NCBI GenBank assembly: GCA_949358305.1
Contig: OX442315.1
Location: forward strand, 29,598,427-29,662,426
From: Strigamia acuminata
Taxonomy: Eukaryota > Arthropoda > Chilopoda > Geophilomorpha > Linotaeniidae
Direction of reading: 5' to 3'
Length of the DNA: 64,000 nucleotides
The position numbers and the translations under genes were made by a program. Shown here piece after piece: positions 18,115 to 30,652 of this stretch. The notes beneath the pieces were generated by a model that did not search any database, was not told the DNA's origin, and saw only the letters and a list, made by a program, of their open reading frames with translations. The stretch's first letter is position 1. Each line of letters opens with the position of its first letter.

Positions 18115-20988
18115 TTAAGAATGTTGCCTGTACTTCTCGGGAATGCAATCCACGTTCTCAAAGATCTTGGCCACGCAAAGGGCAGTTTGAGTCAGCTGCA
18201 CTTCAGTCAAGTTGCTCAAAATCGTCACGACAACTCCTTTAGGTGGATTCAAAGCATTCATGCAGTTTTTGTCTTCTCTGGGCAAGATGAGCAGCACACT
18301 GCTGGCGCCGGCGCTTCCTCCGCTGTGAGTTGCGTAGAATCGTTGGTGGCGGCCGAACGCATGATTTTGGCTTTCCGGCACAACTCCCCAACCCATTCCG
18401 TACCATTCGTTTCCAATTGGTCTTCCGTCAGGTCCCAAAGTCTCCACGATGGGGGTCCACAACATCCTCACGGTGTCCTGCTTCAGGATACCAGGCAGAG
18501 GCGGGCACGGTGGTGGCGGTGGTGGACACGATTTCGCACAAGTAGCCAAACTTGAGCAATCCGTTGGGCACGGAGAGCACGGCGATGGGCACGGCGAGCA
18601 CGGCGATGGGCAAGCCGGGGGGCACGACGGCGGACACGGCGATGGGCAAGCCGGGGGGCACGACGGCGGACACGGCGATGGGCAAGCCGGAGGGCACGGC
18701 GATGGGCACGGCGGCGGACAGAGAGGTGGACAAGCAGGTTTGCATTTCTTCTCTCTCGGCATTGAAACCGGGCACATGGGTCTGAACTGGAAACTGTACA
18801 ACATCGCGTTACCGAACTTCACCATGTCTCCAACCGTCGACAAAATTCCATTGCTGGCCCATTTGCATGAATTGTCCACATACGGCGCGTTGATAAGACG
18901 ACACTTGTCTTTGATGTAAAACCTCGATCTGTTTGGAATAATTCTTTCGTGTTCGTCCATGTAAGAATGACACATTCCAATCATCTTGAACGTTTGTTTC
19001 ACCAGGCACACGAAAGGCGCATTCACAGCCGCTTCAGCTGCTGCGCTGAGCAAAACAAATCCCCAGGTCGAATACAAGAACTTGCAACCTACAAATATTT
19101 TCTTTCAATTAATTGAAAACAGCAATCAACCAATTAACCAAACCTGGTTTGTAAATCAAGGGATCATTCTTGAAAATACACAAAGCGTCGTTCACTGAAC
19201 AGCATCGTCGCGTCATGTAAAACTCCCTAATGGCATCATTTGGCTGCCAGCCTGGTGGTGGACACGGTAAACAGCACGGTGCACAAGGTCCGCATGGTCC
19301 ACAAGGTCCACATGGTCCACATGGTCCGCATGGTCCGCATGGTCCGCATGGTCCGCATGGTCCGCATGGTCCGCATGGTCCGCATGGTCCGCATGGTCCG
19401 CATGGTCCGCATGGTCCGCATGGTCCGCATGGTCCGCATGGTCCGCAAGGTCCACAAGGTCCACAAGGTGCACAAGGTAATGGTCCACAAGGTCCACAAG
19501 GTCCGCATGGTCCGCATGGTCCACAAGGTCCACAAGGTCCACAAGGTCCGCATGGTCCACAAGGTCCACAAGGTCCACATGGTCCACATGGTGATGGGCA
19601 TGGTCCACAAGGTCCACATGGTGATGGGCATGGTCCACAAGGTCCACATGGTGATGGGCAGCAAGAAGGCGGGGGGCAGCAAGAAGGTGGAGGGCAGCAA
19701 GAAGGCGGGGGGCAGCAAGAAGGCGGGGGGCAGCAATCCTTAGGAGGACAGCAAGGATCCTTTGGTGGGCAGCAAGGGGGTGGCGGGCAGCAAGATGGCG
19801 GCGGGCAGCATGGGGGTGGAGGGCAGCAATCCTTAGGAGGACAGCAAGGATCCTTTGGTGGGCAGCAAGGGGGTGGCGGGCAGCAAGAAGGCGGCGGGCA
19901 GCAAGGTGCCGGCGGGCAGCAAGGTGCCGGGCAGCAGGGATCTTTTGCACAGGGCGATGGACATTTTGGAGCGCATCGTTGAACGCCGTCCACTGGTGGT
20001 GGTGGACATTTGTCGTAGTGTCGGATACCACTCAAATGCGACACTAAATGACGCGGAGTGATGCAAACCTGAAATGTTCAATGTAGTTAAATTTAGTCAC
20101 AATTAGGATTGATTAGTGTTACTCTTTCGCATTGGAATGCTTTTTCTGGGAAACAAGGCACATAACACTGAATTGGTCTATCCAGGTCCAGTTTTCCTGC
20201 CTCCCAAATTCTGGCTACGATGGCCATGGTGACTGCATTACTAATACTAGCAATGCGCATAACCGTGTTTGCACACATTGGAACTCTGTTCTCCACATCG
20301 GCGTAACCGAAACCTGGAATCAGCAATAAACTCTAAACTCGCAAAAGTATTTACAATTAAAGTATTTTACATTACCTTCCTCCCAGACGAGGTTTCCATC
20401 AACACTAACTCCAACAACCAGGCCTGGAATACCGATTTCGTCCTAAAAGCAAAATCGAACGTTCGAAATTTGAAAAGGCCTAATTCGAATAAAAATTGAA
20501 GAAAATTTGGAAAAAAAACTTACTTTTAATCTGTTCACGATATCTCTGCATTGCGTGACTGCCGTGCACAATTCGATGGGATTTCCTTTGACAAAAGGCT
20601 TGCACTTATCGGGTAAGGGACACGGGGCCGGGGGACAGCATTTGGAGGCCGGTTTCGGGCAGCACACCGGCGGACAACACACCGGCGGTGGGCAACAAGG
20701 GGGTGGCGGGCAACATGATGGGGGTGGCGGGCAACAGGCAGTACATTCGGTTTGCAAAAATGGGCTTTGGAAAGGCCATTCTACTTTGTACTTTTGACTG
20801 GCGAATCTGGCTACTCCAGCTGCTCCTGCCGCTGCAGCGAAGAGTCCCACGTACTTGGTGATCGGGGATGTGGCATACTTGTTATGTCTCAGGGACTGCC
20901 AGTTGTAGAAGTTGCGGCTTTGAAAATTTTTGATGCTTTCACCGTTCAGTCTCGTCTTGCGAACGTGGTTCAAAATTCGCAAAAGCAT
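18115..20988 (-). CDS. LACTB-like: LACTB-like mitochondrial protein with three Cys/Pro/Gly repeat inserts; SxxK lysine lost
   Basis: Exons on the minus strand: 20988-20524, 20442-20376, 20313-20123, 20068-19144, 19088-18115. The total is 2622 nt, 873 aa against ~547 in human LACTB. The N-terminus is basic, Leu-rich and lacks acids, as in a mitochondrial presequence; an Ala/Gly-rich hydrophobic segment lies at ~47-62. The LACTB core is unmistakable: [75 protein letters not shown]. The catalytic S-x-x-K motif (SISK in human) is S200-I-S-N203 here, so the general-base lysine is missing. Three repeat blocks sit at loop positions: ~82-129 (CCPPP), ~262-515 (CCPPPxCCPPKD, then many GPC triplets) and ~666-740 (CPPxCPSP). 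The middle block falls where human LACTB has a charged insert. Known LACTB is an intermembrane-space filament former; the role of this version is inferred to be structural. Confidence 0.9.
18560..18735 (-). repeat. Coding tandem repeat, CPPxCPSP block (36-bp unit)
   Basis: On the plus strand a ~36-bp unit beginning GGCGATGGGCAAGCCGGGGG repeats at about 18601, 18637 and 18673, flanked by shorter GGCGATGGGCACGGCGAGCA copies. In the LACTB-like frame it encodes Cys-Pro-Pro-x-Cys-Pro-Ser-Pro. It is inserted between the conserved NAMLY segment and the [12 protein letters not shown] segment. Confidence 0.85.
19275..19660 (-). repeat. 9-bp coding minisatellite encoding (Gly-Pro-Cys)n
   Basis: The plus-strand unit CATGGTCCG, or its variant CAAGGTCCA, is reiterated for nearly 400 bp. 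About 15 units in a row are exact between ~19317 and ~19450. On the minus strand it reads GGA-CCA-TGC, or a T/TG variant, giving Gly-Pro-Cys triplets. The reading frame of the LACTB-like exon runs uninterrupted through it. Confidence 0.9.
19660..19945 (-). repeat. 15-bp coding repeat ([11 protein letters not shown]) with a 93-bp higher-order duplication
   Basis: Units of the form GGGCAGCAAGAAGGCGG repeat in tandem. A larger 93-bp block starting at 19731 recurs at 19824 almost unchanged, which adds 31 codons. In the minus-strand frame it encodes CCPPP-x and CCPPKD motifs. All unit lengths are multiples of three, so expansions keep the frame. Confidence 0.85.
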
Positions 20989-25150: not shown

Positions 25151-28100
25151 TTAATTTCTTCTACGCCGAACTCTAGAAACTCGCCAAGCATTAGGCTCTT
25201 CGTATTTGTTATACAAAGGTTCCAGTTTCTGTTGTTTTTTATATTTGCTCAACTTGGTGGGATCGGCGAATTTAAAGAAAGCAGGAGCAAACTCCACGAG
25301 CCACTTTGGATCGGTCGTGGTCACCTCGCGCATGTACTCCTTGGTCGTCTGCACAAGTTCGTGGTAGACAACCCACTCAGGTTGTCTATTAAAAAGCGCA
25401 CTCGAAGGGTGAATATAAACCACCTGTCCATCTACAAGCGTCCTGTACCCTTCTTGCGGGTCCTTTTTTGCAGCGTTTCGGAAAAACCCACTGCAAATTG
25501 CTTTCTGAACTCTTGCTGTGTTTTTACCGCACGAGACCACATCCAATTTGTGCCTAAATAAGCATAAAAACATGGTTCAGCACTCTTTAAATTTAAAAAT
25601 AACAGATATAATTACCTGTCCATTATGCCCAACAATTGTTTTCGGACATCTTGTGCCCTCTTTAAAGTCCTGATCTGCACAAAGTTCTCATAACACCAGG
25701 GGTTGGAGAATTTATTCGCTTTCCACGAATTGTACACAGCTAATAATGTTAAATGGTCGCCTTCCAGTTGATTGAATTTCGCTTTTTTCTGGTCCGCCAA
25801 CGCTTGTTTGTCCTTCAGATAAAAAAAGAGAAACAATTAGCACCAATATTAGCATTTTTGACATTAAAATTTCCTTACCTTTGGTCGGTAAAACACATTT
25901 TGTACCGACAACATTGACACTATAGTTAAAATCTCATCGCTACACCCCAAGTGTACGGACATGATTAGCATTTTTGCAGGTGATGGGTCCATGGGAAATT
26001 CGGCCATTCTTCTACCGAGACGCGTAAGAAGACCTTCGTCATCAAGAGCACTTAAGGAGTGCAATTGTTCCAGCGCCATTAAAAGTGACTCCATCGGAGG
26101 GGCATCCATGAAGTCAAAAGACAGTAAATCATTAATGCCCATCGCCTTAAGCTGCAGTAAAGTGCTGGCTAGATTGGTCCGTTGAATCTCCGGCACCGGG
26201 GTCATAAGCATCTCGTCACGATAGGCACGTTCCGTGTAGAGACGATAAGTCTTTCCAGGACCAGTTCTTCCTGCACGACCAGCTCGTTGTTTAGCTTGAG
26301 CCTGAAATAAAAATCAAACGTTAAATAATTATCTAAAACGATTTCAAGTAAATTTTAAACATACTTGTGAAATTGGAGTAACGACGAGAGAGTCCATTCC
26401 AGTTTTAGAATTGTAAACTTTCTGTTTCACAAAACCCGGATCGACCACGTAATAAATCCCGTCGATCGTTAATGATGTTTCCGCGATATTCGTCGCAATC
26501 ACAACCTTTCTGGATCCAGGTGGCGCAGGTTCGAAAATTCTCGTCTGCATTTCACTCGGCAGAGCGGAATAAACCGGTAAAATAATCAATTCTGGAACTT
26601 CGGGTCCCAACGACTTCATTCTTTCAAATAAAATTTCGCACGACGTGTCAATTTCTTCCTGCCCCGTCAAAAAAAGTAAAACATCGCCAGGCGGTTCCGT
26701 CAAATGTATCTGCATGACCGTGATCAAAGACGCATCTAAATAATCAGTTTCGGGTTCCTTCGTGTACAGAATCTCAACTGAAAATGTTCGACCAGGAATT
26801 GTAAAAATCGGTGCCTTAAAAAAATACTGAGAGAATTTCGTAGCATCCAGCGTCGCCGATGTGACGATTAATTTTAATTCCGGCCTTTTCTTAACGGCTT
26901 GTTTCAACAGCCCAAACAGCACGTCCGTATGGATAGTTCTTTCATGAGCCTCGTCCAGCATGACTACCGAATAGCCCTTTAAGTCCGGATCAATCAGACA
27001 TTCTCTCAACAACATTCCGTCCGTCATGTATTTAATTACGGTCTCGGGACTCGTGCAATCTTCGAATCGAATTGTGTAGCCGACTTCTTGCCCCAACCGA
27101 CAACCAAACTCCTCCGCAACTCGCTTGGCAACCGACATTGCGGCCACTCTCCTGGGTTGGGTGCAACCAATCTTTCCTCTCGTAGTGAAACCTGCTTCGG
27201 CTAAATACTGCGTTATCTGCGTCGTCTTTCCAGATCCTGTTTCACCGATCACGACGAGTATCTGATTATCCGTGACTGCTTTGACAAGCTGGTCTTTCAG
27301 CTTGTACGTCGGCAAGCTTTGCCGCTGCTCTATGATAGACATTTGCGTCTTTTTCCCGTAAGAAGCTTTGCTTCCGCCAGTTATATGCTTCTTCCATTCG
27401 GGAATATCTTGAACACCCAACCCGATTCCCCTCATATTTGCGGCTAAAGTTCGTCCTTCAGCATCCGGCATCGGGTCTATCCAATGTTTATTCAGACCAG
27501 TTGGAATGGAATCCATTTCCTGCTCCCTTTGCTGCATTTTAATTTCACGTCTCTCCTTCGCTAATGCACTTTGCATCATTGCAGCTTGCGCTAATGAACC
27601 ATCCGGATTCTATAAAAATAAAGTAAAAATAATCAGCACCCAAGTTGAGCTAAATTTCAAAATTCATTAATTACCTTTACGATCCGAACTGGACTAAGAT
27701 CGAAATTAGACCTTCCGTGGCCCGTCAAAAAAGGAGGTTCTTCCTCGACCAATTCTAATTCGAGATCTTCGTCATCGTCCTCCTCATTGGGAAGCAAACC
27801 AGTGTCTTCATCAAAATCCGGCAACTCTGATTTGTCGATGCAATTCGCAGCTAGCATCTGCTTGATTTCCCATTTCTCTGGTGACGAGATTCTCTGCACT
27901 CGTCTTCTAGTGTTGACGTCATCGTCGTCAGGTGCACTAACCAAAGGCAAACTAGAAGGTCTGTCCGGATTCCTCGATATCTCCTCAGACATTTGTCCGT
28001 CTGGACCGGTTCTGCTTAATACGGGATTGAGATCCTCTCCAGTATCTTGATCAACATCTTTCATCGATAAACTCGTCTTCAGACCAGTGAAAGATAACAC

Positions 28101-29118
28101 TTTGACCTTAACTCTCTGTCCCCGCTGAACCACGTCGGAAACATTCGTGACTCTGCCTTCTCTACGAAGCTGCGATATATGCACGAGACCTTCCCATCGT
28201 TTCTGTAAACCTTCCAGCTGTACGAAGCAGCCGAATTGCATAATGTTGGTCACCTTTCCCTCCAATATTTTTCCAACTTCTGGCTCGAGAGCGGGCGCTC
28301 TGTCCGATTCTTTTTCTCGTTCACGTCGATTTTCCCAGCGAGAATGCTTTTCCTTAGATGATCGTCGATGCCGATGCGATTTACGATCCTTACTACGGGA
28401 TCTACGATGCCGATCGCGAGATCTCGACCGCGAATGACGTCTTTTCTTGCGATCGCGACTATGACTTCTGCTGCGACTGCGGTTTCGATGTGGTTTTCGG
28501 TCATTTCCTTTGTGTGACGATGATTTTGGGGCTAGAGCTTCGAGCTCTAGCATTGCATCTGCAGCTACTTTTAGGTCTTCATCTAACATGGTCTAAAATC
28601 AGAATAATTTGTGCTTTAGTTAATTAAATCTGTTTTTAATTTTTTTTTGAAATCTTACTCTCATGGATGGGTCATTTGGCATCGCTAAAAACGGAAAGCG
28701 ATCTTTCTTCACATCTACTTCCCATTCTATTTTGTCGCCAGATGATGAATGTATTTTTGGCTTCATATGTTGTATTATCCGCAATAAATTCGATGTAAAC
28801 GAATCCTGAAATTAAAAAATTAAAATTAGGAAAATGGTATAATGATAAATGACATTAAAACAAAGAAAATTGTTACGTACCGGAAATTCGGCTCCGTTTT
28901 CGACCAAAACCTGTTTAAATTTGTCAAAGGAATCATTTTTCTCGGATAAATGGATGATAAATTCGGCTAAAAATCACGAAAAATTAATTAGATGTTCGTT
29001 AGAATTCAAAACGTTTAGTCTTACCCAAATCTTTATCGTTAATCCCCAAATGGTTTTCAAGTTCCGTGCATATTTTTGAAACCAAAGACAAATGTTCAAG
29101 TTGTCTAAGTTCGTCCAT
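25151..29118 (-). CDS. DHX8: ATP-dependent RNA helicase DHX8/Prp22
   Basis: This DEAH-box helicase releases spliced mRNA from the spliceosome. Minus-strand exons: 29118-29025, 28966-28881, 28805-28659, 28592-27675, 27609-26365, 26301-25879, 25812-25616, 25553-25151. The total is 3513 nt, 1170 aa (human 1220). In order: the N-terminal domain ([19 protein letters not shown]), an RS/RD-rich linker, an S1 RNA-binding domain ([18 protein letters not shown]), then the helicase core. The core has Walker [25 protein letters not shown], the HA2/winged-helix region and an OB-fold, and the protein ends RRRRN. An acceptor-like TTTCAG sits directly before the ATG, so the 5' UTR is probably spliced; a few more upstream codons cannot be excluded. 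Confidence 0.96.
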
Positions 29119-30652
29119 CTGAAATAATTCGAAGTCCTTCGGCTGAGATACTAATTAATAAGAGCCTACAGATCACGACTCAGAAAGTAATCCACAGGTT
29201 CGACGGTGAAACGATACATGGCTGTATTTCTGTATTTAGCCACTATAGACCACAGAATTATTCTGTGATTAGACGACATAGTGGCGCCACGCAGCGGTAG
29301 TTTGTTCCGCATCCAAATTGACCAGTTGTTGCGATTTGCGAGTTGTTGTCAATTGATGTTATGGTTTATATATTTTTTTATTTAATGAGAACGAAAAAGT
29401 TCACAAATAAACATCTGGCACAATTGGATAATCAAGAGAAAACACACATTATTTTATTTGATTGCAGTCAGTTTTTTTTTTATGATTTGGTCCAAATCCT
29501 ATAAAATATTTCAAATACCGGCACCAAGTTGGTTGGCATTATTTACGTAGCACTATGTGATGAATTAAAAACAGACTTACAGACCTAATAAGAGCGTTTC
29601 CCATTTTTAGTACTGCCAAACGATCCAGTCATGACAGTAAAACTTTAAAACAAAATTCAAAATATATTTTAATTAACTGAATATAAATTAGTATTTTTAG
29701 GCAATGTTAGGCGAAGACATTAAAGCAGCTGCAGATGCGATGTTAGAACTTGAAGATCTTGCTCTAAAACTATCATCACATCAAGGAAATGATCGACGGC
29801 CACGGGATTTATTACGATCCTGGTTTTGTGAAACAGAAAGTTTACAATTCTATAACGAGAATAGACTCTCCAATTTCAAAAGTATGTGTAAAAATTAATT
29901 AAAGTTATTAAAATAGATTTGATTTTTGATTTTTATTTCAGGCTCAAGCTAAGTTAAACAACGAGCAGGCAGTGCAGGAAGGACGGATCCTGGAAAGGCT
30001 TATCGACTTTATTCAGAACTTGCTTACCGTGATGAAATGCTGACGATCCTAGTTCCGGAGATTCAACGGACCTATCTAGCCAGCACTTTACTGCAGCTTA
30101 AGGCGATGGGCATTAATGGTTTACTGTCTTTTAATTTCACGGTCACGCCTCCGATGGAGTCACTTTTAATGGCGCTGGAACAATTGCACTCCTTAAGTGC
30201 TCTTGATGACGAAGGTCTTATCACGCGTCTCGGTAGAAGAATGGCCGAATTCCCAATGGACCCATCACCTGCGAAAATGTTAATCATGTCCGTATACTTG
30301 GGATGCAGCGATGAAATTTTAACTATAGTGTCAATGTTATCGGTATAAAATGTGTTTTACCGACCAAAGGTAAGGAAATTTTAACGTCTACTAGTAGATG
30401 CTAATATTGGTGCTAATTATTTCCCTTTTTCTCTTATGGATAAACAAGCATTAGCTGACCAGAAAAAAAGCGAAATTTAATCAACTGGAAGGCGACGATT
30501 TGACATTGCAGAAAATTATCCGTATACATTTCGTGGAAAGCGAACAAATTTTCCAACCCTTACTTGTTAGTGTTATGAGAACTGTGTGCAGATCAGGACT
30601 TTAAAGAGGGCACAAGATGTCCGAAAACAATTATTGGGCGTTATGACAGGTA

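What the first reader, a model, noticed from the sequence alone, without database searches (positions are those of the whole stretch)
18115..20988. LACTB scaffold fused with sperm-type Cys repeats: a possible structural sperm-mitochondrial LACTB
A mitochondrial LACTB-like core carries three separate inserts of [11 protein letters not shown], (Gly-Pro-Cys)n and CPPxCPSP. From established knowledge, CCPP(K) repeats characterise mammalian SMCP, a protein of the sperm mitochondrial capsule. Cys-Gly-Pro repeats characterise the Drosophila Mst(3)CGP proteins and ODF1 of sperm tails. Finding both repeat types on a mitochondrial filament-forming protein suggests a new disulfide-cross-linked coat of the sperm mitochondrial derivative. 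The fusion is seen in the sequence; the sperm role is inference.
Basis: partly seen in the sequence, partly recalled or inferred. Interest (0 to 1): 0.88.

Follow-up and report, generated by a model that had tools for sequence, protein, structure and literature searches.

The report
Dead mitochondrial enzyme with cysteine armour
An animal gene keeps the body of LACTB, a mitochondrial enzyme that forms filaments, but has lost a key catalytic residue and gained three long cysteine-proline stretches like those of sperm-tail proteins, which suggests an enzyme turned into a cross-linked building material, probably in sperm.

Summary
A five-exon minus-strand gene (CDS 20988-18115, introns GT-AG) encodes an 873-aa LACTB with three Cys/Pro inserts holding 114 of its 133 Cys. 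(1) The catalytic SxxK lysine is Asn; it is Lys in 236 of 236 listed homologues. (2) The catalytic domain itself has 15 Cys in 365 columns, against a mean of 4.3 and a maximum of 10. (3) The main insert replaces helix alpha4 and most of loop L6 of human LACTB, a loop reported as solvent-exposed on the filament. (4) No repeat-free LACTB was found in this 237.5-Mb assembly. (5) The same genome has other Cys-Gly-Pro or CCPP genes, one a small heat-shock protein with CCPP repeats, like the sperm protein ODF1.

Best reading: the genome's only detected LACTB became a disulfide-linked filament pseudoenzyme, probably of sperm mitochondria. The pseudoenzyme part is strong; sperm and disulfides are inferred. 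No expression data were available and the species is unknown. None of the 236 listed homologues carries such inserts.

The parts
18115..20988 (-). CDS of the Cys-rich LACTB (five exons, 873 aa, calculated 91.7 kDa)
20524..20988 (-). Exon 1: basic N-terminus (8 Lys/Arg, 1 Asp/Glu in 44 aa), weak hydrophobic stretch aa 46-64, insert I1
20376..20442 (-). Exon 2: start of catalytic domain
20123..20313 (-). Exon 3: carries SISN in place of SISK
19144..20068 (-). Exon 4: carries insert I2
18115..19088 (-). Exon 5: YST and HSG motifs, insert I3, C-terminus
20605..20745 (-). Insert I1, CCPPP type, 14 Cys in 47 aa, linker before the catalytic domain
19256..20008 (-). Insert I2, [11 protein letters not shown] then (Cys-Gly-Pro)n, 79 Cys in 251 aa, between human positions 226 and 227, in place of helix alpha4 and most of loop L6
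18499..18786 (-). Insert I3, CPPxCPSP type, 21 Cys in 96 aa, between human positions 424 and 425
20237..20248 (-). SISN (aa 200-203): catalytic Ser kept, SxxK Lys replaced by Asn
19066..19074 (-). YST motif (aa 555-557), kept
18319..18327 (-). HSG motif (aa 804-806), a variant seen in 10 of 236 homologues

Best explanation
The gene is the only LACTB detected in this genome, turned from an enzyme into a structural pseudoenzyme. It is imported into mitochondria like LACTB (inferred from its N-terminus and from human LACTB). The folded core, with LACTB dimer-interface residues kept, assembles into filaments in the intermembrane space (inferred from human LACTB). The active site is dead or crippled because the SxxK lysine is Asn (sequence shown; loss of activity inferred). 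Three flexible Cys-Pro arms leave the core at loop sites, the longest at the loop that faces solvent on the human filament, and extra Cys are spread over the core. In the oxidising intermembrane space these Cys would cross-link filaments to each other and to other Cys-Pro proteins into an insoluble lattice (inferred). The likely place is the sperm mitochondrion, where it would stiffen the mitochondrial part of the tail (inferred from the same repeat types in known sperm proteins and from an ODF1-like gene in the same genome).
For: Intact spliced frame. LACTB identity. K to N in SxxK against Lys in 236 of 236; GGG to SNG against GGG in 233 of 236. 15 core Cys against a mean of 4.3 and maximum of 10 in 365 columns; 15 of 159 departures from consensus are to Cys against 458 of 19508 pooled. 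Human filament residues identical: dimer 6 of 7, interface one 7 of 10, against 191 of 390 overall. PMC9815587 (abstract; passages): LACTB filaments in the intermembrane space; L6 exterior; L6-replacement mutant still forms filaments. Only LACTB detected in the assembly. Same repeat types elsewhere in the genome, with zero matches for reversed patterns, including HSP20 plus CCPPPP exons. Precedents: S-Lap inactive enzymes in the sperm mitochondrial crystal, Knon, Mst(3)CGP, ODF1 C-X-P repeats, SMCP capsule.
Against: No RNA, protein or localisation data. Species, and so its sperm type, unknown. Polymer interface two is poorly kept (4 of 14 identical). One ordinary homologue also reaches 9.3 percent of departures to Cys. 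The Cys-Gly-Pro array is recently amplified (36 of 36 Gly codons are GGA), so part of it could be drift. The hydrophobic stretch is weak (mean 1.28). Structure prediction of the C-terminal part was uninformative (mean pLDDT 54.8). Peroxide hindered human LACTB filaments in vitro (PMC9815587 passage). One search's CPxPCPxPC pattern was no commoner in the genome than its control (31 against 38).
Confidence: 0.57

Rival explanations
1. Structural pseudoenzyme, but in another hardened tissue or secretion (cuticle, egg shell, gland) and not in sperm.
For: Cys-Pro repeats also occur in skin barrier proteins: SMCP lies in the epidermal differentiation complex among other Cys/Pro-rich proteins (PMC10791643 passages). 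No expression data.
Against: The N-terminus and parent family point to mitochondria, and the genome's ODF1-like gene resembles a testis-specific protein.
Confidence: 0.14
2. A thiol or metal store: repeated CxxC (CGPC) and CC motifs bind copper or zinc, or buffer redox, in the mitochondrial intermembrane space, with LACTB as carrier.
For: 133 Cys in 873 aa, with 35 CGPC and 19 CCPP motifs.
Against: Pro-rich arms with nearly fixed Cys-Gly-Pro or CCPP spacing resemble the repeats of sperm structural proteins. Metallothionein resemblance was not tested.
Confidence: 0.1
3. Still an enzyme: another residue replaces the lysine, and the inserts are tolerated decoration.
For: Ser200, YST, an HSG seen in other homologues, and 5 of 6 pocket residues that I checked are kept.
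Against: Lys is invariant in 236 of 236 listed homologues; GGG is also changed; core Cys are raised.
Confidence: 0.1
4. The inserts are not part of the mature protein (spliced out), or the gene is a decaying pseudogene.
For: The arrays are tandem repeats and expand readily; other splice choices also stay open.
Against: No stop in 873 codons, all splice sites intact; a strict pattern finds no internal GTRAG donor plus Y-tract acceptor pair in exons 1, 4 or 5 (one such donor in exon 5, no acceptor); in the Cys-Gly-Pro array mismatches at lag 9 fall 8, 11, 27 on codon positions 1, 2, 3 of 109 each.
Confidence: 0.04

Closest known systems
Mitochondrial LACTB (human, PDB 7ulw)
   Same: Fold (by sequence), order of SxxK/YxT/HxG motif sites, basic N-terminus, dimer-interface residues
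   Different: Catalytic Lys lost, 15 core Cys, 251-aa Cys-Pro arm in place of alpha4 and most of the membrane-binding loop L6, two further arms
S-Lap (sperm leucylaminopeptidases, Drosophila)
   Same: Enzyme family with changed catalytic residues serving as structural material of sperm mitochondria
   Different: S-Lap are leucyl aminopeptidases of the M17 family; here a beta-lactamase fold with Cys-Pro arms (absence of such arms in S-Lap is recalled)
Mst(3)CGP family (Drosophila)
   Same: Repetitive Cys-Gly-Pro; loss of the Mst84D genes also deforms nebenkern derivatives (review passage)
   Different: Small proteins without an enzyme core (recalled)
ODF1/HSPB10 (mammals)
   Same: Cys-X-Pro repeats attached to a folded domain; a separate gene of this genome has an HSP20 domain plus CCPPPP repeats
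   Different: Heat-shock scaffold, outer dense fibres, not mitochondrial
SMCP (placental mammals)
   Same: Cys/Pro-rich, disulfide-linked, tied to sperm mitochondria
   Different: No enzyme core (recalled); capsule of sperm mitochondria rather than LACTB's intermembrane space; absent from monotremes and marsupials in the survey, so resemblance is convergent
Knon (Drosophila ATP synthase d paralog)
   Same: Mitochondrial protein with a large, mostly unstructured addition that shapes sperm mitochondria
   Different: Glu/Lys-rich C-terminal tail, not Cys-Pro inserts; a canonical subunit also exists

Membership tests
LACTB | Significant full-length similarity to mitochondrial LACTB | tested here: met
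   7ulw E 1.4e-109 in three pieces
LACTB | SxxK, [SY]x[NT] and [KH][ST]G active-site motifs, used by Peitsaro et al. to classify LACTB-family proteins (PMC2266909, first part of the results section read) | tested here: not met
   SISN instead of SISK; the other two are present. So it derives from LACTB but is not a LACTB enzyme by that definition
LACTB | Mitochondrial import sequence | tested here: inconclusive
   Basic N-terminus with a weak hydrophobic stretch; no targeting predictor available
LACTB | Filament formation | not testable with these tools
   Only residue conservation: dimer 6 of 7, interface one 7 of 10, interface two 4 of 14
Mst(3)CGP | Repeated Cys-Gly-Pro motif | tested here: met
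   36 CGP units
Mst(3)CGP | Male-specific germline transcription | not testable with these tools
   No RNA data
SMCP | Homology to the mammalian epidermal-complex gene | not tested
   No sequence comparison with SMCP was made. The core is LACTB, and a survey places the origin of SMCP within placental mammals, so membership is unlikely
Sperm structural pseudoenzyme (S-Lap-like in kind) | Enzyme fold with altered catalytic residues | tested here: met
Sperm structural pseudoenzyme (S-Lap-like in kind) | Located in sperm mitochondria | not testable with these tools
   No proteomic or imaging data

The most novel reading that the evidence does not exclude
One lineage gave up LACTB as an enzyme and kept the gene only as a filament-forming, disulfide-cross-linked pseudoenzyme in the intermembrane space of sperm mitochondria. 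It belongs to a genome-wide set of unrelated scaffolds (LACTB, small heat-shock protein, a 4,386-codon open frame) that carry the same Cys-Gly-Pro/CCPP cross-linking arms: an invertebrate counterpart of the mammalian mitochondrial capsule and outer dense fibres, built convergently.
Probability: 0.4. Interest if true: 0.88.

Novelty: new variant of a known kind. Interest (0 to 1): 0.74.

Why it matters
LACTB filaments are studied as an enzyme and tumour-suppressor system in which polymerisation supports catalysis. A natural LACTB that has lost the lysine but kept dimer-interface residues would show that the filament can be useful without catalysis. It would also give a second route, besides S-Lap, from mitochondrial enzyme to sperm structural material, and it would point to shared cross-linking arms on unrelated proteins, a testable principle for how sperm tails harden.

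Tried and rejected
Collagen: the (Gly-Pro-Cys) register scores Pfam Collagen at 28.7 bits, cut-off 27.2, and collagen and BclA chains in the PDB. Rejected as composition: a collagen triple helix needs trimers and, in animals, usually prolyl hydroxylation (recalled). AKAP14 chain 9d2f: the match is to Ala-Pro repeats, so not a sperm-axoneme link.

A recent paralogue of a normal LACTB: not supported. The Periplaneta LACTB query gives five matches, all inside the window gene, in exons 2 to 5. PF00144 finds one further gene, secreted-looking, with no significant tblastn match to the LACTB core (best E 0.26).

Synonymous-only variation among the 32 Cys-Gly-Pro units: dropped as evidence, because the units were picked by their peptide; only the lag test is free of that circularity.

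CPxPCPxPC genome pattern: 31 matches against 38 for the reversed control, so uninformative. Tree: the window row is a long branch (1.58) of unusual composition, next to chelicerates at 89/85, not starred; not used to name the species. Structure prediction of the exon-5 product with 31 homologues: mean pLDDT 54.8, unusable; no fold search was made. Osiris family search: 0 matches but the controls were silent too, so uninformative. Rfam and tRNA scans of the window: 0 matches. Paper searches for LACTB with testis, sperm, filament, insect, spermatid, paralogue, pseudoenzyme or arthropod terms: none of the listed titles and abstract starts describes this fusion; listed were 1 of 1, 8 of 8, 20 of 217 and 15 of 7,063, so the last two were seen only in part.

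Full report
What is there. The finding's interval is exactly one coding sequence on the minus strand. Five exons (20988-20524, 20442-20376, 20313-20123, 20068-19144, 19088-18115) join through GT-AG introns into 873 codons without a stop. Other splice choices also stayed open (30 combinations of over 700 codons); I chose the one whose junctions best match LACTB, and no RNA was available to confirm it. Pfam gives Beta-lactamase at 1.3e-36 and the best solved structure is human LACTB, 7ulw, E 1.4e-109, aligned in three pieces between the inserts. Inserts: I1 aa 82-128, I2 aa 262-512, I3 aa 651-746, together 114 of 133 Cys.

In 236 homologues (all that were listed together; left unlisted by the tool were 1 of 121, 150 of 270 and 634 of 754 hits) the SxxK lysine is Lys in 236 of 236; here it is Asn. 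The GGG motif (233 of 236) is SNG here. YST and HSG remain within family variation. Peitsaro et al. state that the residues needed for activity are conserved in all metazoan homologues (PMC2266909: abstract; first part of the results section). The list leans to vertebrates because only the best 120 per search are shown.

The core itself has gained Cys. Over 365 well-filled catalytic-domain columns the window has 15 Cys; homologues have a mean of 4.3 (sd 1.5, maximum 10). Of its 159 departures from consensus 15 are to Cys, against 458 of 19508 pooled over homologues (binomial 6e-6, ignoring relatedness); but one homologue reaches 9.3 percent, about as high as the window's 9.4. In a wider column set (420 columns, 198 homologues) the window has 22 Cys, and at 15 of those 22 the commonest residue in homologues is polar or charged, which suggests surface positions; no coordinates were available to check this.

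Where the inserts sit. I2 falls between human residues 226 and 227 and takes the place of helix alpha4 (227-242) and most of flexible loop L6 (243-290) (numbering from PMC9815587 passages). [quoted passage not shown] a mutant with K255-K284 replaced by a linker still made filaments and stayed active, at a lowered level, but lost more than 70 percent of membrane tethering (passages). Homologues have a median of 52 residues in this stretch (range 23-129); the window has 277 (whose script printed 278, one too many). I3 sits between human 424 and 425, where homologues have a median of 13 (range 4-135) and the window 98. So the arms grew at natural loop sites, and most of the membrane-binding loop was exchanged for a Cys-Pro arm.

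Filament residues. Of the human residues named in the paper that I mapped, identical here are: dimer interface 6 of 7, polymer interface one 7 of 10, polymer interface two 4 of 14; overall core identity is 191 of 390. The dimer is best kept; interface two, including loop L15, is not. I infer that dimers and some polymer form are plausible; an identical filament is not shown.

Repeats and selection. The Cys-Gly-Pro block is a 9-bp tandem array. Its 32 units differ only at synonymous third positions, but they were picked by their peptide, so this is no evidence of selection. The lag test is free of that: mismatches at lag 9 fall 8, 11, 27 on codon positions 1, 2, 3 of 109 each; the other blocks lean the same way more weakly (I1 lag 18: 18, 16, 31 of 39; I2a lag 18: 55, 47, 65 of 131; I3 lag 36: 38, 30, 44 of 79). 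All 36 CGP units in the gene use GGA for Gly, so the array was amplified recently. In two other genes of the genome the CGP units (75 and 78, also picked by peptide) use all four Gly codons, which suggests older arrays held to the peptide.

The genome. The assembly (237.5 Mb, 157 contigs) has the window at C3:29598427-29662426. PF00144 gives three matches in two genes: this one and a secreted-looking protein at C1:30918121-30920622 that reads AGITQ where ASISK would be expected (position aligned by eye). Periplaneta LACTB gives five matches, all inside the window gene, in exons 2 to 5. So no normal LACTB was found. A gap in the assembly or a very diverged copy cannot be excluded, and a repeat with human LACTB did not complete.

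Companions. An exact pattern for CGPCGPCGP matches 84 times at five places; CCPPPxCCP matches 22 times at three places; the window gene is one of the places in both, and the reversed patterns match 0 times. The other places are: a single open frame of 4,386 codons with 559 Cys at C3:23387004-23400161, sharing CCPPKD with LACTB (9 and 4 times); a 1,139-aa frame at C6:7413866-7417282; near-duplicate CGP frames at C1:51.10 Mb and C8:10.14 Mb; and at about C1:45094080-45095160 small CCPPPP-coding pieces with splice-site flanks, followed by a frame with an HSP20 domain (1.9e-9; the gene was not assembled). Three further HSP20 frames that I read, at C1:45090710, C1:45092655 and C3:29707076, have 6 to 12 percent Cys; the remaining 6 of the 10 HSP20 matches were not read. 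The CCPP-HSP20 gene has the plan of ODF1/HSPB10, described as a testis-specific small heat-shock protein with C-X-P repeats (PMC8913478 passages). This is the best indirect evidence for sperm, and it is resemblance, not expression. A looser pattern, CPxPCPxPC, was no commoner than its control (31 against 38).

Precedent. Drosophila S-Lap proteins have changed catalytic residues; [quoted passage not shown] Knon is a testis-enriched ATP synthase subunit paralogue with a 532-aa, mostly unstructured addition (PMC5364652, abstract and one section). Mst(3)CGP genes are male-specific, and loss of the Mst84D genes deforms axoneme and nebenkern derivatives (PMC10645079, one passage). SMCP helps form a disulfide-linked capsule of mammalian sperm mitochondria (PMC9956255, passages).

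Judgement. Shown: an open, spliceable fused gene, loss of a catalytic residue that is invariant in the homologues listed, Cys enrichment of the core, loop-site inserts, no second LACTB detected, companion Cys-Pro genes. Inferred: import, filament formation, disulfide cross-linking, sperm. The species is not identified. I place the fusion as a new variant of a known kind (structural pseudoenzyme; Cys-Pro sperm protein), because each half has precedent and the combination was found in none of 236 listed homologues and in none of the paper listings seen.

Noticed in passing
G000:C3:23387004-23400161 (L050, L051), minus strand: Open frame of 4,386 codons with 559 Cys, Cys-Gly-Pro and CCPPKD arrays, and recurring RLxxG(S/A)D and KxR(S/T)(L/I/V/M)DK(S/T)xxG motifs; its two parts gave no Pfam match.
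   Followed up: partly
G000:C1:45094080-45095160 (L053): HSP20 frame preceded by small CCPPPP-coding pieces with splice-site flanks, an ODF1/HSPB10-like plan; other Cys-rich HSP20 frames lie beside it and at C3:29707076, about 45 kb beyond the window end.
   Followed up: partly
G000:C6:7413866-7417282 (L052): 1,139-aa open frame, 15 percent Cys, 78 Cys-Gly-Pro units, no Pfam match.
   Followed up: partly
L054 and L055 (C1:51.10 Mb and C8:10.14 Mb): Near-duplicate genes with Cys-Gly-Pro blocks and RLAGGGxK repeats on two contigs.
   Followed up: no
L061:3590-4528 (C4:5588289 on): 313-aa Cys-Pro repeat protein whose N-terminus weakly resembles a linker histone (16 bits, below the cut-off of 22.4).
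   Followed up: no
L004:4014-4352 (C1:30918013 on): The only other Beta-lactamase-family gene found looks secreted and also lacks a recognisable SxxK motif (AGITQ, aligned by eye).
   Followed up: partly
window 29953-30348: Isolated plus-strand fragment resembling the helicase-associated part of the DEAH-box helicase gene at 25151-28592, probably a partial duplicate.
   Followed up: no
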